Below are positions 2,068 through 10,278 of a DNA stretch of 64,000 nucleotides, one piece after another. Made by a program: the position numbers and the translations under genes. The notes beneath the pieces are model-generated. The model made no database searches, was not told the origin of the DNA, and worked only from the letters and a program-made list of their open reading frames with translations. Position 1 is the stretch's first letter, and each line of letters starts with the position of its first letter. The stretch comes from Telluria beijingensis (GTDB lineage: Bacteria; Pseudomonadota; Gammaproteobacteria; Burkholderiales; Burkholderiaceae_D), in assembly GCF_030770395.1 (NCBI RefSeq), contig NZ_CP132480.1:1537335-1601334 (forward strand), read 5' to 3'.

Positions 2068-2286
2068 ACGGTTCTTTCGACAGGGCAATGGGTCAGAAAA
2101 GTATAGCCATAGCCGATGAGGCCGTCTGCGGTTGAAAGCGCAAATTCAGTAAAAAACAACGAAAAATCAGCAAAATCACTAACTGACTTTCGGGCCGGTT
2201 TCTCTGCTGGCAAGGGTGACCACAAACAGGCTGTTCATTGTTGATAGAATGGAACCAGGGATGAAGAACGCCACGACAGGATGACC

Positions 2287-3315
2287 ATGGATAAAACGGG
2301 CCGCAGCAGGGGCAGGGGAACGGGGCGCGCGACGCTCGAGCAGGTGGCGGGCATGGCCGGGGTGTCGATCATGACCGCCTCGCGCGCGCTGAGCCAGCCG
2401 CAGATGGTCTCCGAAGCCACCCGGGTCAAGGTGGAGCGCGCGGTGGCGGAGCTGGGCTATGTGCCCAACCGCGCGGCGCGCGCGCTGGCCTCGTCGCAGT
2501 CGCACGTGATCGTGGTGCTGGTGCCGTCCCTGTCCAACGCCGTGTTCACCGCCGTCCTCGAAGGCATCCACGACGCCGTCGCGCCGGGCCAGTACCAGCT
2601 CCTGATCGGCAACACCTATTATTCGCAGGCCGAAGAAGAAAAGCTGCTGCGCACCTACCTGCAATCGAGCCCGGACGGCATCCTGTTCTCGAGCCAGGCG
2701 CACAGCCCGGCCGTGGCGAAGATGCTGGAGGCGTCGCAGGTGCCGGCGGTATCGATGATGGACCTGTCCGACGCCCCCGGCGACCTGTCGGTCGGCTTCT
2801 CGCAATTCGAGGCCGGCATGGAGATGACGCGCCACCTGCTCAGGAAGGGCTACCGCCGCATCGGCTTCATGGGCGCCCAGCTCGACGAGCGCACCTTGCG
2901 CCGCGCCGACGGCTACCGCGCCGCGATGGTCGAGGCGGGCCTGGCCGACCCAAGGCTCGAGATGATGGTGCCCGACCGTTCCACGATCGCGCTCGGCGCC
3001 GAATTGATGGGGCAGATGATGACGAACATGCCCGACTGCGACGCCGTCTTCTGTTGCAACGACGACCTGGCCCACGGCGCCGTCTTTCACTGCCAGCGCC
3101 ACGGCATCCGCATCCCGCAGGACATCGCCGTCAGCGGCTTCAACGACCTTCCGGCATCGGCATGGATGATGCCGTCCCTGACCACCATCGACACGCCGCG
3201 CTACCAGATCGGCTTCGAGGCCGCCGGCCTGCTGCTGCAGGTGATCAAGGGCCAGCAACCCGAACGCAAGCGCATCGACCTCGGCTTCACCTTGCGCGAG
3301 CGCGAGAGCGCCTGA
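2287..3315 (+). CDS. gntR: LacI-family transcriptional repressor, GntR (gluconate) type
   Basis: This 342-residue regulator has an N-terminal LacI helix-turn-helix (ATLEQVAGMAGVSIMTASRAL) and hinge followed by a periplasmic-binding-protein-like effector domain. Several blocks match E. coli GntR as I recall it, notably GAQLDERT, DAVFCCNDDLAHGAVFHCQR and the closing LDLGFTL-like segment, so gluconate or 6-phosphogluconate is the likely inducer. The second ATG is preferred because AGGA sits five bases before it and directly abuts the first ATG six bases upstream. The gluconokinase gene follows on the same strand. A dyad matching the GntR operator pattern lies in that promoter and another in the MFS-GH94 promoter, so it probably represses both. 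Confidence 0.88.
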   Translation: MDKTGRSRGRGTGRATLEQVAGMAGVSIMTASRALSQPQMVSEATRVKVERAVAELGYVPNRAARALASSQSHVIVVLVPSLSNAVFTAVLEGIHDAVAPGQYQLLIGNTYYSQAEEEKLLRTYLQSSPDGILFSSQAHSPAVAKMLEASQVPAVSMMDLSDAPGDLSVGFSQFEAGMEMTRHLLRKGYRRIGFMGAQLDERTLRRADGYRAAMVEAGLADPRLEMMVPDRSTIALGAELMGQMMTNMPDCDAVFCCNDDLAHGAVFHCQRHGIRIPQDIAVSGFNDLPASAWMMPSLTTIDTPRYQIGFEAAGLLLQVIKGQQPERKRIDLGFTLRERESA

Positions 3316-3327
3316 TGCCTGACGGCC

Positions 3328-3357
3328 TTTACATCGCTCCTCCATCGGGGCTACAAT
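3328..3357 (+). promoter_or_regulatory. Gluconokinase promoter
   Basis: A -35 TTTACA and a -10 TACAAT are separated by 18 bp in the gap between gntR and gntK. Transcription would start near 3364, placing the dyad at 3368-3383 at about +5 to +20. gntK can therefore be transcribed independently of the regulator gene. Confidence 0.6.
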
Positions 3358-3367
3358 CGGCACTTCG

Positions 3368-3383
3368 ATGTTAGCGTTAACAT
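3368..3383. promoter_or_regulatory. GntR-type operator in front of gntK
   Basis: ATGTTAGCGTTAACAT is a 16-bp dyad with seven of eight half-site positions symmetrical. It resembles the E. coli GntR operator (ATGTTACCGGTAACAT from memory) and lies just downstream of the predicted transcription start, a repressing position. It ends one base before the GAGG ribosome binding site. A 14-of-16 match lies in the MFS-GH94 promoter. Confidence 0.72.
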
Positions 3384-3389
3384 GAGGAA

Positions 3390-3905
3390 ATGACGACACA
3401 AGCGCACGAGGACAAGGGGACCGCCTGGGTGGTGATGGGCGTGAGCGGCTGCGGCAAGAGCAAGATCGGCTCGATGCTGGCGGACGCCCTCGGCATCCCC
3501 TTCATCGAAGGCGATGCCTTCCACTCCGAGACCAATGTCGCCAAGATGTCGGCCGGCACCGCGCTGACCGACGACGACCGCCGCGACTGGCTGCTGTCCT
3601 TGCGCGACAAGCTGGCCGCGCGCGAGGGCGGGGCGGTGCTGTCGTGCTCCTCGCTCAAGCGCGCCTACCGCGACCTGCTGCGCGGCGCCGGCGGCGACGT
3701 GCGCTTCGTGCACCTGGCCGGAGAGCGCAGCCTGCTGGAACAGCGCGTCAGCAACCGCCCCGGCCACTACATGCCGCCGTCGCTGCTCGACAGCCAGCTG
3801 TGCACGCTCGAACCCCTGCAGCCGGACGAAGCCGGCATCACGCTCGATATTCGCGACACGCCCGAACGACTGGTCGCGCAAATCCTCGCCACCATCCCCG
3901 CCTGA
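3390..3905 (+). CDS. gntK: Gluconokinase
   Basis: This enzyme (171 aa, the usual size for the GntK/IdnK family) phosphorylates D-gluconate to 6-phosphogluconate with ATP, feeding the Entner-Doudoroff and pentose phosphate routes. The P-loop GVSGCGKS is at residues 17-24. The family segments EGDAFHSETNVAKMSAGTALTDDDR and CSSLKRAYRD are present, as is the late SNRPGHYMPPSLLDSQ lid region. It is cytoplasmic. No gluconate permease gene is adjacent; the only nearby transporter is the MFS carrier of the GH94 operon, so the gluconate may arise inside the cell from a disaccharide acid. Confidence 0.95.
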   Translation: MTTQAHEDKGTAWVVMGVSGCGKSKIGSMLADALGIPFIEGDAFHSETNVAKMSAGTALTDDDRRDWLLSLRDKLAAREGGAVLSCSSLKRAYRDLLRGAGGDVRFVHLAGERSLLEQRVSNRPGHYMPPSLLDSQLCTLEPLQPDEAGITLDIRDTPERLVAQILATIPA

Positions 3906-3918
3906 TCCGCACCGCCGG

Positions 3919-3939
3919 CCCCGCCGTATGCCGGCGGGG
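3919..3939 (+). terminator. Hairpin after gntK
   Basis: A perfect 8-bp GC stem (CCCCGCCG paired with CGGCGGGG) closes a 5-base loop 13 bases after the gntK stop. No U-tract follows, so intrinsic termination would be weak. Confidence 0.5.
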
Positions 3940-3967
3940 TAATCGCGCGCACGCCATCCACACTGTA

Positions 3968-3996
3968 TGGACACGCTCCACAAATCGGACTATATT
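3968..3996 (+). promoter_or_regulatory. Promoter of the GH16 glucanase gene
   Basis: A -35 TGGACA and a -10 TATATT are separated by exactly 17 bp. The start would fall near 4003, leaving a long 140-base leader to the GTG start codon. The operator at 4009-4024 lies at about +7 to +22. Confidence 0.62.
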
Positions 3997-4008
3997 TTAC
4001 GTTCCTGA

Positions 4009-4024
4009 TTGGAAAGGTTTCCAA
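4009..4024. promoter_or_regulatory. LacI-type operator O1 of the GH16 gene
   Basis: TTGGAAAGGTTTCCAA is a 16-bp dyad with one central asymmetry, directly downstream of the predicted start. Its sequence differs from the gntK operator, so a different LacI-family regulator, not encoded in this window, is expected to bind it. Confidence 0.65.
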
Positions 4025-4142
4025 CTCCGCATTCCGCCCGAATCTGCACGACATCATTCGAGACCAACGCACAGTTGGCGAGGCGCGGCACGGCCATCCG
4101 GCATGGGCTGCATTTTCTTGTAGTGAGAACCGAGGAGTCGAC

Positions 4143-5924
4143 GTGAATCAACAGATCCAACATCATCGCTCGATATGGAAACCTTTCCAAATGCTCATGG
4201 CAGGTGCGCTGCTGGCGTGCGGCGCGCAGGCCACGGCCAGCGTCACCAATCCGGTCATCGGCCAGTTGCTATGGTCCGACGAGTTCAACGGCAGCAGCGT
4301 GAACACCGGCGTGTGGAACCTGCAGGACGGGAATGGCTGCCAGATCGGCCTGTGCGGCTATGGCAACGCCGAGCTGCAATACTACAGCCCCAATAACGCC
4401 AGCATCGTCAACGTGCCCTTCGAATCGGGCACGCGCGCGCTGGCGATCCAGGCGCGCAGCCAGACGATCGGTAGCAATGTGTTCACCTCGGCCCGCCTCG
4501 ACACGAAGAACAAGGTGCAGGTGCAGTACGGGATGATCGAGGTGCGCATGGCCGCACCGAACCTCGGCACCGGCTTGTGGCCGGCCGCGTGGATGCTGGG
4601 CGTGAGCCCGCAGACCTGGCCGCGCAACGGCGAGATCGACATCATGGAGGCGGGGCACCGGGCGTCCGAACGGGCGCATGGCGGCGCGCCGTCGTCGAAC
4701 CACTTCGTCGGCTCGAACGTCATTACCTGGCAGCAGGCGGCCTGCGTGCCGGGCAACGAGAGCTGCGCCGCGTCGACCGCATGGCAGACCAAGAACTGGT
4801 ACGTGCCCCAGAATTCGCTGGCGAACCGTTTCGTCATCTACCGCTTCTACTGGGACGAGAGCCAGATGCGCTTCACGACGGTCGACAACGGCGTCGAGCA
4901 CAATATGTACAACGCGCCGCTGCCGGTCAATTCGACTGCGCTGCAGGCGCCGTTCTACCTGCTGCTGAACATGGCCGTGGGCGGCAACTTCACGGACGCC
5001 GCCAATCCGGGGCAGGTGACGGCGCCGCTGCCGGGCACCATGTACGTCGATTACGTCCGCGTGTACCAGCTCGACGGCAAGGGCCAAGTCAAGCTGGGCG
5101 ACCAGACCGTGCCCGAAGTGGCCGGCAAGTTCGGCGTGTTCACCGACACCACGGCGGTCAACGACAAGCTGGTGGCGGGCACCAGTTCCGACATCTTCCT
5201 GTGGAATGCCGGGTCCACCGGCGCCGGCACTACCGCGCCGTTCGAAGGCAATAACGTCATTGCCTGGAGCTACAACACGCCGGGCCAGTGGTTCGGCGGC
5301 GGCATCCAGGCGCGCCAGGCGCGCAACCTGAGTAACTACCGCGCCAACGGCACCGTGAAATTCCGCATCCGGATCCCGGCCAATGTCGGCTTCAGGATCG
5401 GCATCGGCGACACCTATACGAACCAGAACTGGGTCAACTTCCCGGCCAACGCCACGACCCATGGCCTGGTGCGTAACGGCCAGTGGGCCCAGGCGTCGAT
5501 CCCGGTCTCGACCCTGCTCGGACCATTGGTCGCGGCCCAGTCGATCCACGACATCTTCATGATCTCGAGCATCGACGGCGCTCTGCCATCATCGACTTTC
5601 CAGTTCGCGATCGACGACATCGTGTGGGAGTCGGGCGGTGGCGGCACCACGCCGCCACCCGAGCCGAGCGGACCGACCTCGGTCAGCCAGACCTCGTCGA
5701 CGATGCTGCAGTTCCGCACCACCACCGGCGGCTGGGCCGACGTGCACTACACCGTCAACAACGGGCCGCAGCAGAACGTGCGCATGCAGCTCGCCGGCGG
5801 GACCAACACGTACACGGCGGGCGGGCTGAAGATCGGCGACGTGGTGCGCTACTGGTTCACTTACTGGGATACGCAGCGCAGTTTTGCGGTCGATACCCAG
5901 CAGCAGGCGCACACGATGCAATAG
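4143..5924 (+). CDS. Secreted GH16 beta-glucanase (laminarinase type) with C-terminal CBM56-like domain
   Basis: This 593-residue secreted enzyme has a signal peptide (hydrophobic core about residues 17-30) and a GH16 catalytic domain to about residue 310. The active-site motif GEIDIMEAG supplies nucleophile E164 and acid/base E169. A jelly-roll-like glucan-binding module (about 320-495, starting VFTDTTAVNDKL) and a Gly/Pro linker follow. The final ~85 residues resemble CBM56, a beta-1,3-glucan binding module (QFRTTTGGWADVHYTVN). It should cleave laminarin-like or mixed-linkage beta-glucans outside the cell. The GTG start has AGGAG five bases upstream. It converges on the GH94 gene with only 20 bases between stops. 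Confidence 0.92.
   Translation: MNQQIQHHRSIWKPFQMLMAGALLACGAQATASVTNPVIGQLLWSDEFNGSSVNTGVWNLQDGNGCQIGLCGYGNAELQYYSPNNASIVNVPFESGTRALAIQARSQTIGSNVFTSARLDTKNKVQVQYGMIEVRMAAPNLGTGLWPAAWMLGVSPQTWPRNGEIDIMEAGHRASERAHGGAPSSNHFVGSNVITWQQAACVPGNESCAASTAWQTKNWYVPQNSLANRFVIYRFYWDESQMRFTTVDNGVEHNMYNAPLPVNSTALQAPFYLLLNMAVGGNFTDAANPGQVTAPLPGTMYVDYVRVYQLDGKGQVKLGDQTVPEVAGKFGVFTDTTAVNDKLVAGTSSDIFLWNAGSTGAGTTAPFEGNNVIAWSYNTPGQWFGGGIQARQARNLSNYRANGTVKFRIRIPANVGFRIGIGDTYTNQNWVNFPANATTHGLVRNGQWAQASIPVSTLLGPLVAAQSIHDIFMISSIDGALPSSTFQFAIDDIVWESGGGGTTPPPEPSGPTSVSQTSSTMLQFRTTTGGWADVHYTVNNGPQQNVRMQLAGGTNTYTAGGLKIGDVVRYWFTYWDTQRSFAVDTQQQAHTMQ
4176..4189. promoter_or_regulatory. Second copy of the GH16 operator inside the coding sequence (O2)
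   Basis: TGGAAACCTTTCCA is the exact reverse complement of the 14-bp core of the upstream operator. It encodes residues 12-16 of the pre-protein. The centres are 166 bp apart, close to 16 helical turns, compatible with a looped tetrameric LacI-type repressor. Confidence 0.55.
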
Positions 5925-5944
5925 CGTTGCCCCGCATGTAACGG

Positions 5945-8314
5945 TCAAGGAACGGTGACGGCCAGCCGATAGCTGCGGCCTGCCTCGATGTTGTCGATGC
6001 GGGCCGCGGGCAGCGCCACGCCATCGCATTCGACCGTGACCCGATCGACCGCGCCACGCTTGATCTCGACTTCGAACACCGCGCCGCGGAAGCGCCGCGT
6101 CACCGACATGCCGTCCCAGCTCGATGGCAGTTGCGGCGCCACCGTCAGGCCTTTCGCATCGCCCTTCAGGCCGCACAGGCCTTCGACCAGGCAGCGGTAG
6201 ACCCAGGCCACGGTGCCGGTGTTGAACAGCTGGCTCGAACGCCCAGCGGTGCGTGGATATTCCTTCCAGGCGCCGCGGTAGTAATTGGGGATGAATACCG
6301 GCAGCTGGCCGCGCTGCAGGTAGTCGTCCAGGCCCGGGCCGGGGATCATCTTGCGCAGCGCGTCGAAGGCGCGGTCGGCCTCGCCGATCGTGTACAGGCT
6401 GTAGATGTAGAACACCGAGGCGTGGTTGTACACCGCGCCGTTCTCAGCCGAGCCGGGATGCTTTTGCGTGACGCGGCCGACGTCTTCGCGCATGGCGCTG
6501 TAGGGCGGGGCGAACATCTGCACGCCGAACGGCGTGCGCAACTGTTCGTCGATCGCCCGCAGCATCAGGGCGCGTTGCGCCTCGCTGGCGGCGCCCGACA
6601 GGAAGGCCCAGCTTTGCGGGTTCAGGTAGATGCGGCCTTCGGTGTCGCTGGCGACGCCGAACTTGACGTCGTCGTCCGTGATGCCGCGCGCGAACCAGGC
6701 GCCATCCCACAGGTGGGCCTCGGCTGCGCCGTTCATCGCTTCGGCGCCGGCGCGATAGTGGGTCAGCGACTGGGCGTCGCCGCGCGCTGCGCATACCTCG
6801 GCCCACAGCTTGAGCGCATAGGCTGCCGCCACCGTCAGCCAGCCCGAGACGCCGCGGCCTTTATAGCCGACCATATTCATCGGATCGCACCAGTCGCCCT
6901 GCTCGATGTACGACAGGCCGCGCGGGTCGCGCCGCTGCAGGAGCCAGTCCATCGCCAGCGAGATGCGTTCGAACACGCTTTTCACCTGGCCGTCGTGGCT
7001 CGCGACCGGGACGTCGAGGATGGCGTCGTCGCCGGTCTCGTCGAGATAGGCGCGCAGGCAGACCGGCAGCCAGACGCAGTGGTCGGTGTGCGGGATCTGG
7101 TTGATGTACTTCAGTTCCGCGCCTTCGAACAGCAGGATCCCGTCCGGCATCGCGCCATTGGCCTCCTGCTGGCTCAGCGCATGCAGGAAGGCGGCGCGCG
7201 CCACGGCCGGCTTGATGAAGGCCATGCCCATATTGTCCTGCAGGTAGTTGCGGGTCTGCGGGTCGGTGCTCAGGCGGTTGACGTCGCCGTGGTAATACAC
7301 CTGGCGCGCCAGCCAGGTGTTGACGAAGTTGTCGAGTTCGCGGTCCGGCGTCCTGACCTGGATGACGCCTTCGCCTTGCGCGATATAGGCCGCGTAGTCG
7401 CGCGCGGCGGCGGCGAAGCCTTCTTCGCTCAGGTAGCGCGCGCGCAGCGCTTCGATCTCGGCATCGTCGAAGGCGGGGCCGAACAGGAAGCGGCGCGTCG
7501 TCGCTTCGCTCGGCGCCAGCGCCAGCCGGTACTGGACCACGGCGGCCGGCGTCTCGTAGCGCGCGTCGCCGCATCCCAGGCGTTCGTTCGCCAACGCCGA
7601 CGGCGCGTGCAGGCCGCCTTCGCCTTCGAAGGCGATCTGCCCCGTCTCCCAGGCGTCCGGCGCCTGCTCGCACAGCAGCACGGTGCGGTCCTTGAACAGG
7701 CGGTTCTTGAAATAGTCTTCGAGTTTCTGGTAGGGCGTGACGCTCGACGCCACGATGCCACCCAGGTCGTGCCGGTACTCGCTTGATTGGTTCATCCACG
7801 ACATGTAGCCGATCGTGAAATACGGGTAGACGCTGATGCGGCGCGGGCGTTCCGACAGGTTCGTCACCTGCATCGACCACAGCTCGGCGACGTCGTCGAC
7901 CGGCAGCGACAGCACCAGTTCGATGCGGATGCCGAATTTTTCGACGGTCCAGCGCAGGTCGTGGCGGCCGACCGAGAATTCGAACAGGTCGACCCCGCCG
8001 CGCACCGGCTCGTAGGGCGCCGAGAACAGTTCGCCCGTGTCTTCGTCCTTCACGTAGAAGAAGCGGCCCGGATGGTGGGCGTAGTAGTGCTGCTCCGGCT
8101 GCATGAAGGACTTGGCCTGCATGTTCGGCGCATGCGAATACTTGCTCGGCTCCGGCTGCATGAACTGGGCGGTGGCGTAGCCGCGGCAGGTCGACTGGAT
8201 CATCATCCTGCGGTTCCACAGGAAGCCGCCGGCCTGCGGCATCGCGGTGGGGCTGGTCAGCACATAGCGGTCGTCTTGCGGGTACAGCATGGATGGAATC
8301 TCCAGTGAGTTCAT
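5945..8314 (-). CDS. GH94 glycoside phosphorylase, probable cellobionic (aldobionic) acid phosphorylase
   Basis: This cytoplasmic enzyme (789 aa) has GH94 architecture: an N-terminal beta-sandwich, an (alpha/alpha)6 catalytic barrel and a C-terminal sheet. The general acid is predicted to be D474 in [12 protein letters not shown]94 enzymes phosphorolyse beta-glucosides to glucose 1-phosphate plus the reducing-end unit. The length, and R614 and K618 four residues apart, fit the gluconate-binding pair I recall from cellobionic acid phosphorylase. The neighbourhood (gluconokinase, GntR-like repressor, shared operator) supports gluconate as product. Laminaribiose or cellobiose phosphorylase remain alternatives. 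The start overlaps the transporter stop (ATGA) with AAGG upstream; an ATG at 8290 with GGAG is also possible. Confidence 0.85.
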
Positions 8315-9687
8315 GGCGCCGCCTTGCGCGCCGCCAGCTCGAGCTGCACGCGCGCCAGCAGTTTGCCGTCGAGGTTATAGAAGCACATCACCAGCACCGC
8401 CAGCAGGGCGAAGGCGGCCGGCACGAAGGACATCAGCCACACGATGCCGGCCTGCGAGCCGGTGGTCTGGGCCGCATTGGGCACGTAGCCGAGCGCCGTG
8501 AAGACGGCGCCGATCACGCTCACCGCGACCGCGGTGCCGAGCTTTTGCGAGAAGGTGGCGGCGGCGAAGGTCATGGCGGTGGCGCGGCGGCCGGTGGTCC
8601 ATTCGTTGTAGTCGGCGGTGTCGGCATACATCGAGAACGCCAGCGGCGACTTGGGGCCGAGCACGAAACCGGTGGCGGCCTGCAGCACGAACATCAGGTC
8701 GATGCGGTCGGCCGGGACCAGGAAGAAGGCGCTTGACAACACGGCGGTCGCGCTCATCAGGATAATCATGAGCAGCTTCTTGTCGACGAAGCGCGTCATG
8801 AGCGGCGTGCAGGCGGCGCCGATGGCGGCGAAGACCATATAGGTCGGCACGAAGCTCGCCATCAGCTCGGGGCGTTCGACCACGTACTTGAAGTAATAGG
8901 CCGAGGTGGTGGTGCGCAGGGTGATGGTCACCATGATCACCAGGGCCAGCACGAACAGCACCACCCACGGACGGTTGGCGGCCAGGTCGCGGATGTCGCG
9001 CCACACGTCGCTCTTCTGGCCGGGCGGCGGCGCGATGCGCTCGCGCGTGCCCACGAAGGTAACCAGGAACATCAGCGCGGCCGCGACGCTCCAGGCCACC
9101 ATGGTCAGTTGCCAGCCGCGGGCGTCGTCGCCGGCGCCGAACCAGTTCACCATGGCCGGGGTGGCGGCCGTCACCAGGGTACTGCCGCCGAAGGCGAAGA
9201 TGAAGCGCAGGCCGTTGATGGTCGAGCGTTCCTGCGGGTCGGCCGACATCACGCCGGACAGCGCGTTATACGGGATGTTGACGCAGGTGTAGAACACCAT
9301 CATCGCGAGGTAGCTGGCGTAGGCCCAGATGAGCTTGCCGTCGGCGTCGAGGTCGGGTGTGGTGTAGGTGAGCACGGCGGCGGCGCCGAGCGGGATCGAC
9401 ATCCACACCAGGTAGGGGCGGAACTTGCCGAAGCGGGTGCTGGTGCGGTCGGCGGCGGCGCCGATCAGCGGGTCGGTGAAGGCGTTGATCAGCTTGATCG
9501 AGGCGAGCAGGGTGGCGGCCTGGGCCGCCGAGATGCCGAAGGTGTCGGTGTAGAAGATCAGCAGGAAGGTCGCGATATTGGCCCAATAAAAATTGAAGCC
9601 CATGTCGGCCACGCCATAGCTGAGCTTTTCGCGCCAGCCAAGGGGGGCGTTCGCTGCCGCAGGTGTCTCGGGCCCGCGTTTGAACAT
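8311..9687 (-). CDS. MFS sugar transporter of the glycoside-pentoside-hexuronide (GPH) family
   Basis: This is a 458-residue inner-membrane symporter with about twelve hydrophobic segments. GPH landmarks are present: [22 protein letters not shown] near the N-terminus, [25 protein letters not shown] after helix 2, and [21 protein letters not shown] in the second half. It is the first gene of an operon with the GH94 phosphorylase and overlaps it by four bases, so it most likely imports that enzyme's substrate, a beta-linked glucosyl disaccharide or its aldonic acid. GGAGA is six bases before the ATG. The promoter and a GntR-type dyad lie immediately upstream. Confidence 0.92.
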
Positions 9688-9713
9688 GCTTGTCTCCAGA
9701 TCTGTTTGGTATT

Positions 9714-9729
9714 ATGTGAGCGCTAACAT
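9714..9729. promoter_or_regulatory. GntR-type operator of the MFS-GH94 operon
   Basis: On the transcribed (minus) strand this reads ATGTTAGCGCTCACAT, identical to the gntK operator at 14 of 16 positions and sharing its first nine bases exactly. It lies at about +2 to +17 of the predicted transcript, the same relative place as in gntK. Confidence 0.68.
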
Positions 9730-9737
9730 ATGCTGTA

Positions 9738-9766
9738 AGTATGCCGTCGAGTAGACTGTATGTCAA
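9738..9766 (-). promoter_or_regulatory. Promoter of the MFS-GH94 operon
   Basis: On the minus strand a consensus -35 TTGACA is followed after 17 bp by CATACT as -10. The start would be near 9731, with the operator directly downstream. Confidence 0.62.
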
Positions 9767-9795
9767 ATACCGAATCGATACACCGAGGTGATCAA

Positions 9796-10278
9796 TTGCT
9801 ACGTTCCATGAATAAGCCATTTGCCGCCACCGCGTTGTCCACCTTGGGACTGGCCCTCGCGGCGATCGTGGTTTCCGGCTGCAGCGCCGACACGCGCGTG
9901 AGCAAGACAATCGGCAAGCTGATCGATGAGGGCGGGGCGAACTCGATCCGCCTGGCCGACGCCACGTCGTTCGACTGGGACCAGGTTTACCTGTTCGGCC
10001 CTTACGCAGCGCGACGGGACATCTGCGCGACGCTGCGCATCGGGGAACGGGAATGTGAGCGCCAGGTGCCTTTCGAGTCGCAGGACGATGACGAGATGTC
10101 GATTGCGTTCCTGGCCAAGGGCCGCCTGGTGCATTACGTGCGGCATTCGCGCGCGAACGGCGACTTCACGCCGGTGCCTGCGCAACAGCCGATCTCCCGC
10201 GACCGCGCGGTATTTCGCAAGCCGCGCGGCGGGGAAGCGGAGGCGGGCCTCGCGCGGGGCAAACTCGTCCTCGAGTAA
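9796..10278 (+). CDS. Putative lipoprotein of unknown function
   Basis: This 160-residue protein has a lipoprotein signal peptide ending in VSGC, with the acylated cysteine at residue 29. The mature part is charged, has a DWDQVYLFGPYAARRDICATL segment and a Lys/Arg-rich C-terminus, and I do not recognise a named family. The TTG start is chosen because GAGGTGATC, a nine-base match to the 16S anti-Shine-Dalgarno end, lies just before it. An ATG four codons further in (9808) is the alternative and does not change the lipobox. It is divergent from the MFS operon and converges on a chemoreceptor gene across a bidirectional terminator. Confidence 0.75.
   Translation: MLRSMNKPFAATALSTLGLALAAIVVSGCSADTRVSKTIGKLIDEGGANSIRLADATSFDWDQVYLFGPYAARRDICATLRIGERECERQVPFESQDDDEMSIAFLAKGRLVHYVRHSRANGDFTPVPAQQPISRDRAVFRKPRGGEAEAGLARGKLVLE

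What the first reader, a model, noticed from the sequence alone, without database searches (positions are those of the whole stretch)
3368..9729. Shared GntR-type operator links gluconokinase and the MFS-GH94 operon
The dyad ATGTTAGCGTTAACAT before gntK and ATGTTAGCGCTCACAT before the divergent MFS-GH94 operon match at 14 of 16 positions. Each lies just downstream of a readable -10. A GntR-like LacI repressor is encoded next to gntK. This predicts one regulon in which a beta-glucosyl-gluconate is imported, phosphorolysed to glucose 1-phosphate and gluconate, and the gluconate phosphorylated. The sites are seen directly; the regulon is inferred.
Basis: partly seen in the sequence, partly recalled or inferred. 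Interest (0 to 1): 0.72.

Follow-up and report, generated by a model that had tools for sequence, protein, structure and literature searches.

The report
Gluconate repressor also governs cellobionate use
A Massilia-like bacterium appears to use its ordinary gluconate repressor to switch on, together, the genes that import and split an oxidised cellulose sugar (cellobionate) and the kinase that consumes the gluconate released; many relatives carry these genes side by side, so the link is well supported by comparison but untested at the bench.

Summary
In detail: both dyads are where stated, agree at 14 of 16 positions, are the window's only places within 3 mismatches of the symmetric 16-mer, and each starts 9-11 bases past a sigma70-like -10. 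The regulator passes the GntR equivalog cutoff; the GH94 enzyme is a cellobionic acid phosphorylase by sequence; the 'MFS' is a GPH symporter. Of 46 related loci with GntR over 60% identical, 45 have a dyad before the phosphorylase or a gene upstream of it on its strand. Of 30 same-genus genomes with gntK, the dyad precedes it in 23 of 24 with gntR and 0 of 6 without. In three lineage groups operator and recognition helix are both altered. The regulon looks wider: gntK2-TonB receptor-GntP and an oxidoreductase/lactonase pair also carry dyads, and two relatives hold most of these genes in one cluster. Binding, inducer and substrate are inferred. No LPMO_10 was found, so the source of cellobionate is open. 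I found no description of this link in the papers searched.

The parts
2281..3315 (+). gntR: LacI-type gluconate repressor (344 aa), recognition helix GVSIMTASR
   Evidence: NCBIfam NF052440 GntR equivalog 511 bits, cutoff 400; LacI HTH and sugar-binding domain; next best match in the genome 35% identical
3328..3357 (+). sigma70-like promoter of gntK: TTTACA-18-TACAAT
   Evidence: 10 of 12 matches; a consensus match only
3368..3383 (+). operator 1 ATGTTAGCGTTAACAT
   Evidence: dyads before gntK in relatives
3390..3905 (+). gntK1: gluconokinase (171 aa)
   Evidence: TIGR01313 176.6 bits, cutoff 113.75
5945..8314 (-). GH94 cellobionic acid phosphorylase (789 aa)
   Evidence: PDB 4zle (S. degradans CBAP) 1184.5 bits, next best 211.1; residues aligned with SdCBAP Q190, Q347, R609, K613 kept as Q196, Q353, R614, K618
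8311..9687 (-). GPH-family cation symporter (458 aa), predicted aldobionate importer; overlaps the GH94 gene by 4 bases
   Evidence: TIGR00792 374.7 bits, cutoff 231.35; PF13347; substrate inferred
9714..9729 (-). operator 2 ATGTTAGCGCTCACAT
   Evidence: a dyad precedes the symporter in 24 of 25 loci of the same arrangement
9738..9766 (-). sigma70-like promoter of the symporter-GH94 operon: TTGACA-17-CATACT
   Evidence: 10 of 12 matches; a weaker second pair (9739-9711) also matches; consensus matches only

Best explanation
A GntR-type LacI repressor (2281-3315) binds near-palindromic operators placed at the likely transcription starts of gntK1 and of the symporter-phosphorylase operon and holds both off. 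When gluconate or 6-phosphogluconate accumulates it leaves the DNA. An aldobionate, most likely cellobionate, enters through the symporter; the GH94 enzyme splits it with phosphate into glucose 1-phosphate and gluconate; gluconokinase turns gluconate into 6-phosphogluconate. Because the phosphorylase makes the inducer, the loop is self-reinforcing after a basal start. The same repressor probably also governs gntK2-TonB receptor-GntP and an aldose oxidoreductase/lactonase pair elsewhere in the genome. Shown by computation: sites, gene families, gene clustering, co-occurrence of regulator and site. Inferred: binding, repression, inducer, substrate.
For: Equivalog-level GntR. Dyad before the best gntK in 23 of 24 gntR+ and 0 of 6 gntR- genomes, Fisher 1.2e-5 (22 of 23 if the own genome is set aside). 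Genome-wide dyad counts: median 9 in 25 gntR+ and 1 in 16 gntR- genomes. Dyad within 2 mismatches before the phosphorylase or a same-strand gene upstream of it in 45 of 46 loci with GntR over 60% identical (before the symporter in 27, gntK in 16, the phosphorylase in 1, gntR in 1), against 1.75% of shuffled region sets of all 80 loci at 3 mismatches. gntR-gntK-symporter-phosphorylase in order on one strand in 16 of 80 loci; in four of these a same-strand gene of about 2.4 kb fills the gap between gntK and symporter. Three lineage groups have both an altered helix and an altered operator. L047 carries lactonase, symporter, phosphorylase, gntR, gntK, TonB receptor and GntP in one cluster with three dyads. 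CBAP-like phosphorylase. In Pseudomonas, GntR binds TAGCGCT/AGCGCT-core operators (PMC5902321, PMC12195362: passages) and is released by gluconate and 6-phosphogluconate (PMC5902321, passages).
Against: No binding or expression data. Genomes share ancestry, so the p-values overstate independence. The gntK genes of the six gntR- genomes are only 56-64% identical to the query, so part of the contrast may reflect the type of gntK. Exceptions: G042 has gntR and gntK but no dyad; L055 has none; G001's second gntK has none; none lies in the 3.5 kb around one of G043's two gntR genes (L223). Operators of the Ser/Ala-type helices ending in Met (SIM, STM, SAM, APM, ATM) overlap, so no fine helix-operator rule is shown. 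Three own LacI paralogs share helix residues (SAM, SPM, SAM), two of them beside related sites, and a fourth (L100) lies beside a site that keeps the AGCGCT core, so cross-binding is possible. No LPMO_10 gene in the genome.
Confidence: 0.8

Rival explanations
1. Another LacI paralog of the genome, for example that at C1:2447251, C1:5756329 or C1:3547778, controls the symporter-GH94 operon, and the likeness to the gntK operator reflects only the common LacI-family half-site.
For: 14 LacI-family proteins in the genome; paralogs with helices SAM and SPM lie beside related sites, and one with helix SPA lies beside GTGAGAGCGCTAACAG, which keeps the AGCGCT core; SAM-type GntRs in L047, L052, L057 use the same operator as the window.
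Against: At two mismatches the sites beside the first two paralogs break the core (AGCGCA, TGCGCT, AGCGCG, CGCGCT), while the window's sites keep AGCGCT or AGCGTT. A GntR over 60% identical lies in the same locus (10 kb either side at most) in 46 of 80 phosphorylase loci. Dyads before gntK are absent in the 6 gntR- genomes.
Confidence: 0.1
2. GntR controls gntK and the GH94 operon, but the natural substrate is a different glucosyl-acid, for example a beta-1,3-linked glucosyl-gluconate, in keeping with the secreted GH16-type enzyme between them.
For: An enzyme with CBM56 and a SKN1/KRE6 match (GH16 by that match and by recall) lies between gntK and GH94; no LPMO_10 in the genome.
Against: That enzyme is found in only 6 of 80 loci, L016-L021, and no dyad within 3 mismatches lies before it in the window nor within 4 mismatches and 450 bases of it in those loci; the GH94 keeps the four SdCBAP residues examined.
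Confidence: 0.12
3. The two dyads are a chance resemblance with no shared regulator.
For: With a degenerate pattern at 3 mismatches the window count is only marginal.
Against: 0 of 300 simulations reach two sites at 3 mismatches; conservation across loci at varying distance from the gene.
Confidence: 0.02

Closest known systems
GntR (LacI type) gluconate regulon of Pseudomonas aeruginosa and P. plecoglossicida
   Same: Same equivalog family; operator with TAGCGCT or AGCGCT core over the promoter; GntP, and gluconokinase in P. plecoglossicida, as targets; gluconate and 6-phosphogluconate as effectors in P. aeruginosa (PMC5902321, PMC12195362: passages).
   Different: Those passages name no phosphorylase, aldobionate symporter, TonB receptor, aldose oxidoreductase or lactonase as GntR targets; operator flanks differ.
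Cellobionic acid phosphorylases SdCBAP (4ZLE) and XCC4077
   Same: GH94; 1184 bits to 4zle. Enzyme names from PMC8950772 (passages).
   Different: Regulation of those genes by a GntR was not found in the papers searched; XAC4195 (Xanthomonas citri, annotated as the same enzyme) appears in a quorum-sensing expression table (PMC6337780, one passage).
Neurospora crassa cellobionate pathway (CBT-1, CAP, GnK)
   Same: Same steps: transporter, phosphorylase, gluconokinase (PMC4537572, passages).
   Different: Fungal, a different MFS transporter; no GntR-type repressor in the passages seen.
E. coli cellobionate use through AscB
   Same: Bacterial growth on cellobionate.
   Different: Growth depends on AscB, proposed to act by hydrolysis, and its asc-operon regulator is AscG (PMC4403981, passages).

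Membership tests
GntR equivalog (NF052440, LacI superfamily) | score above curated cutoff over whole length | tested here: met
   511 bits, cutoff 400, residues 12-344
GntR equivalog (NF052440, LacI superfamily) | linked to gluconokinase, with an operator at its promoter | tested here: met
   gntK starts 74 bases after gntR, dyad between; dyad in 23 of 24 gntR+ genomes
GntR equivalog (NF052440, LacI superfamily) | released by gluconate or 6-phosphogluconate | not testable with these tools
   needs purified protein
Pseudomonas GntR operator | TAGCGCT core | tested here: met
   operator 2 reads TTAGCGCT on the - strand; operator 1 reads TTAGCGTT, one base off
Pseudomonas GntR operator | flank AC-N-AAG-N before the core (PMC5902321) | tested here: not met
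   neither site has it; the window's flanks are ATGT
Cellobionic acid phosphorylase (GH94) | GH94 domains, closest to SdCBAP among solved structures | tested here: met
   PF17167 and PF06165; 1184.5 bits to 4zle, next 211.1
Cellobionic acid phosphorylase (GH94) | residues Q190, R609, K613 (role in gluconate binding recalled from Nam 2015, not read) | tested here: met
   Q196, R614, K618 in the window; motifs for these and Q347 found in 78 of 80 loci, GR[VI]TQK missing in L092 and L094; paper not held
Cellobionic acid phosphorylase (GH94) | activity on cellobionate | not testable with these tools
   enzyme assay needed
GPH cation symporter | TIGR00792 over cutoff | tested here: met
   374.7 bits, cutoff 231.35
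Gluconokinase GntK/IdnK type | TIGR01313 over cutoff | tested here: met
   176.6 bits, cutoff 113.75
E. coli-type GntR (PRK14987) or IdnR (NF047913) | score above cutoff | tested here: not met
   259.8 of 433 and 285.6 of 500 bits

The most novel reading that the evidence does not exclude
The GntR regulon is a complete aldobionate system that makes its own substrate without an LPMO: a periplasmic aldose-aldose oxidoreductase and lactonase oxidise cellobiose (or other aldoses) to the aldonate, the TonB receptor of the gntK2 operon brings aldobionates through the outer membrane, the symporter imports them, and the phosphorylase releases gluconate that feeds back as inducer. This would give an outer-membrane receptor for oxidised cello-sugars and an oxidative disaccharide route parallel to periplasmic glucose oxidation.
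Probability: 0.22. Interest if true: 0.68.

Novelty: new variant of a known kind. Interest (0 to 1): 0.5.

Why it matters
Cellobionate is a product of oxidative cellulose breakdown, and I found little on how bacteria sense it. Here the predicted sensor is the ordinary gluconate repressor reading the product of the pathway, which would explain why gluconokinase and the phosphorylase are switched together. The altered operators and helices in three lineage groups give a ready series for testing how LacI-family repressors and their operators change together, and the TonB receptor found in several of these clusters is a concrete candidate for oxidised-sugar uptake across the outer membrane.

Tried and rejected
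Chance resemblance: rejected and by conservation. Control by another LacI paralog: considered and kept as a rival. GH16-type enzyme as a pathway member: not supported, 6 of 80 loci and no dyad before it. LPMO in the same genome as source of cellobionate: looked for, none found.

Script faults: a first count (47 of 80 loci) dropped the symporter wherever its hit touched the phosphorylase hit and stopped at gaps over 420 bases; (58 of 80) mends the first and takes in any same-strand gntR, gntK or symporter starting within 6.5 kb; its numbers are used. In four loci (L034, L036, L037, L053) the counted dyad is before gntK, 2.5-2.8 kb before the symporter; a same-strand gene of about 2.4 kb with a TonB-receptor-like N-terminus fills that gap and no dyad within 3 mismatches lies in the 500 bases before the symporter, so that they are one transcript is inferred. 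In one search the second gntK of G005 (L141) counts as lacking a site because the window ended short; one search shows TTGTTAGCGCTATCAT there. Counting it, 5 of the 6 second gntK copies looked at (L136-L141) have a dyad; second copies in other genomes were not tested.

Rows that do not fit: G042, L055, G001's second gntK, and one of the two gntR loci of G043 (L223). G003 and G035 lack gntR yet have 7 and 6 dyad-like places; G031, G032, G041, G042, G043 and G047 have gntR but 0 to 3 (forward strand). Of 12 phosphorylase loci without a full LacI match in reach, 3 have a dyad (2 within two mismatches) and 9 none. Of 22 loci with LacI at 38-60% identity, 10 match the generic motif within three mismatches (1 within two); the other 12 share TAGGATAGCG and GGATAGCGCT 10-mers instead. 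Lactonase loci L148 and L149 have no dyad; only the 8 best lactonase matches were examined. The match list was cut off; only its per-genome counts are used.

Literature: Nam 2015 on the CBAP structure is not held. Searches for a described link: 27 listed; 20 of 25 listed; 1; 1; 0. The single paper, PMC12076931, holds both words only in its reference list, apart from each other. PMC7564387 and PMC6337780 name the enzyme in annotation and expression tables (passages). Comparative studies PMC4052901 (one of 8 listed of 32) and PMC5343134 were seen by passages only. The other papers listed were not opened. Structure prediction, the large protein database and the RNA tools were not used.

Full report
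What is there. The window lies at C1:1537335-1601334 of a 6.02 Mb single-contig genome; the closest named phosphorylase loci are from Massilia arenae and M. timonae, 93% identical. On the + strand are a LacI-type regulator (2281-3315) and a gluconokinase (3390-3905). On the - strand a symporter (9687-8311) and a GH94 gene (8314-5945) overlap by four bases. A secreted enzyme with CBM56 and a SKN1/KRE6 match lies between (4143-5924).

The sites. Both dyads are as described. The window holds exactly two places within three mismatches of ATGTTAGCGCTAACAT, and none of 300 Markov simulations reached two. A looser degenerate pattern was only marginally above shuffles. Each dyad starts 9 or 11 bases past the -10 of a 10-of-12 sigma70-like pair, so it should cover the transcription start, a usual place for a repressor.

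The proteins. The regulator scores 511 bits to the NCBIfam GntR equivalog (cutoff 400); it misses the cutoffs of the E. coli GntR and IdnR models. Kinase and symporter (GPH family) pass their cutoffs. The GH94 enzyme matches 4zle with 1184.5 bits and the next structure with 211.1; 4ZLE is the cellobionic acid phosphorylase of Saccharophagus degradans (PMC8950772, passages). Residues Q190, R609 and K613 of that enzyme, which I recall as gluconate-binding (the paper is not held), and Q347 (named in PMC5309861, passages) are kept.

Test 1, gene neighbourhood. Of 80 phosphorylase loci from named records (the best 80 of 513 found), 46 carry a GntR over 60% identical. In 16 of them gntR, gntK, symporter and phosphorylase lie in that order on one strand within 6.5 kb; in 5 more gntR is upstream on the same strand; in 25 neither gntR nor gntK is upstream on the phosphorylase's strand, as in the window. 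In four of the 16 a same-strand gene with a TonB-receptor-like N-terminus fills the gap between gntK and symporter. More distant loci keep the set with a GntR of 41-48% identity: 9 of 10 with helix SAI (Cellvibrio-like) and 11 of 12 with helix SPI (Roseateles/Pelomonas-like) have all four genes; one sample of each, L063 and L066, passes the GntR equivalog cutoff (408.7 and 514 bits).

Test 2, the dyad before the phosphorylase unit. 45 of the 46 loci have a dyad within two mismatches before the phosphorylase or a same-strand gene upstream of it: the symporter in 27, gntK in 16, the phosphorylase in 1, gntR in 1. In the window's arrangement it is 24 of 25, before the symporter. Shuffled regions of all 80 loci reach three mismatches in 1.75% of trials. 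In that arrangement the dyad lies about 3 to 320 bases from the symporter, so it is not kept merely by overall similarity.

Test 3, regulator and site together. Of 41 same-genus genomes (own included) 25 have gntR and 30 have gntK. Taking the best gntK of each of the 30, a dyad within two mismatches lies upstream in 23 of 24 gntR+ genomes and 0 of 6 gntR- genomes (Fisher 1.2e-5). Genome-wide dyad counts have median 9 with gntR and 1 without. Shared ancestry inflates these figures, and the gntK genes of the six gntR- genomes are more diverged (56-64% identical to the query), so they may be another type. G003 and G035 lack gntR but have several dyad-like places; G031, G032, G041, G042, G043 and G047 have gntR but few. 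In the 13 genomes G000-G012, a phosphorylase at least 73% identical is in 6, all gntR+; 2 gntR+ genomes lack it, one of them 83% complete.

Test 4, helix and operator. Helices SIM, STM, SAM, APM and ATM go with overlapping operators of the form NTG[T/A]TAGCG[C/T]TANCAN (CTGTTAGCGCTATCAT in 12 of 21 ATM loci), so no fine rule shows there. Three groups differ clearly: GTM/GAM with TTGGTAGCGCTACCAA in G031, G043 and G047 and partial forms in G041, G006 and G030; SPI with AGGATAGCGCTATCCA (shared 10-mers in 12 of 12 loci, full form seen in 9); SAI with ATGATAGCGCAA[T/C]CAT in 9 of 10 loci. This is correlation by lineage, but it is what a cognate pair predicts.

The wider regulon. In the own genome 18 places lie within two mismatches of TGTTAGCGCTAACA, against 10 for the reversed pattern. 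Five lie at genes that fit together: gntK1, the symporter operon, two before gntK2, and one between an oxidoreductase and a lactonase. gntK2 (62% identical to gntK1) is followed on its strand by a TonB-receptor plug-domain protein, a GntP permease and a pectate-lyase-like/SGL protein. The oxidoreductase matches aldose-aldose oxidoreductase 5a02 with 440 bits; the lactonase is SGL-type. In 5 of 5 examined loci where this oxidoreductase adjoins the lactonase (own included) a dyad precedes it, 4 of 5 within two mismatches; of the other 3 lactonase loci 2 have none and one has a dyad before the adjoining symporter. In L047 (Massilia sp. IC2-477) lactonase, symporter, phosphorylase, gntR, gntK, TonB receptor, GntP and the SGL protein form one cluster with three dyads; L069 has the set without the lactonase; the oxidoreductase is in neither. 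In 9 Roseateles/Pelomonas-like loci a homologue of that TonB receptor (61-69% identical) sits beside gntR. So genes at three places in the window's genome are clustered in two relatives, and each place keeps a dyad. The remaining dyad-like places lie beside other LacI genes, inside genes, in a short repeat or beside genes with no evident link.

How it most likely works. GntR represses; gluconate or 6-phosphogluconate releases it, as in P. aeruginosa (PMC5902321, passages). Cellobionate enters through the symporter, the phosphorylase yields glucose 1-phosphate and gluconate, GntK phosphorylates gluconate. The pathway thus makes its own inducer. Sites, families, clustering and co-occurrence are computed; binding, effector and substrate are inferred.

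What is open. No LPMO_10 gene was found, so cellobionate must come from other organisms or from another oxidation. The oxidoreductase/lactonase pair could do this in the periplasm; its Caulobacter relative was tested on glucose with fructose and on xylose in the paper seen, whose text does not contain the word cellobiose (PMC4628093, passages). That is the boldest reading left open.

Novelty. The parts are known: GntR regulon, cellobionic acid phosphorylase, gluconokinase. I found no paper joining them under GntR, in the passages, nor in passages of two comparative regulon studies; the library holds only open-licence papers and most listed papers were not opened. I rate it a new variant of a known kind: the gluconate regulon extended to aldobionates.

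Noticed in passing
C1:3517483-3525523 (L112:484-8524): Second gluconokinase with two GntR-type dyads, followed by a TonB-receptor protein, GntP permease and a 1012-aa pectate-lyase-like/SGL protein; homologues of the receptor (61-69%) lie in 11 of 80 phosphorylase loci.
   Followed up: yes
C1:2764878-2767104 (L120:3879-6105): Divergent aldose-aldose oxidoreductase-like gene and SGL lactonase with a GntR-type dyad between them; a dyad precedes this oxidoreductase in 5 of 5 examined loci.
   Followed up: yes
window 4143-5924: Secreted GH16-type enzyme with CBM56 between gntK and GH94, found in only 6 of 80 loci (L016-L021); no dyad before it.
   Followed up: partly
L099, L100 and L101: Other LacI paralogs lie beside related dyads, mostly with an altered core (such as TGTTAGCGC[A/G]AACA), one (L100) with the AGCGCT core; cross-talk with GntR is possible.
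   Followed up: partly
L097 (C1:4925444-4926457): GntR-like paralog (300.9 bits, below the 400 cutoff) beside TTGATACCGGTAACAT, an ACCGGT-core site.
   Followed up: no
L034, L036, L037, L053: A gene of about 2.4 kb with a TonB-receptor-like N-terminus sits between gntK and the symporter on the same strand.
   Followed up: partly
L016, L017: About 4 kb separates gntR from gntK; the dyad stayed with gntK.
   Followed up: no
L023, L025-L030, L032: A different GFO/IDH/MocA-like gene (28-32% identical to the oxidoreductase) lies upstream of the symporter on the same strand.
   Followed up: no
window 9760-10278: Small gene without a family match, divergent from the symporter; operator 2 lies 30 bases before it and could also affect it.
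   Followed up: no
C1:5149194-5151041: Second GH94-type match, 29% identical, within a 2688-aa open frame, in size like cyclic glucan synthases (recalled).
   Followed up: no
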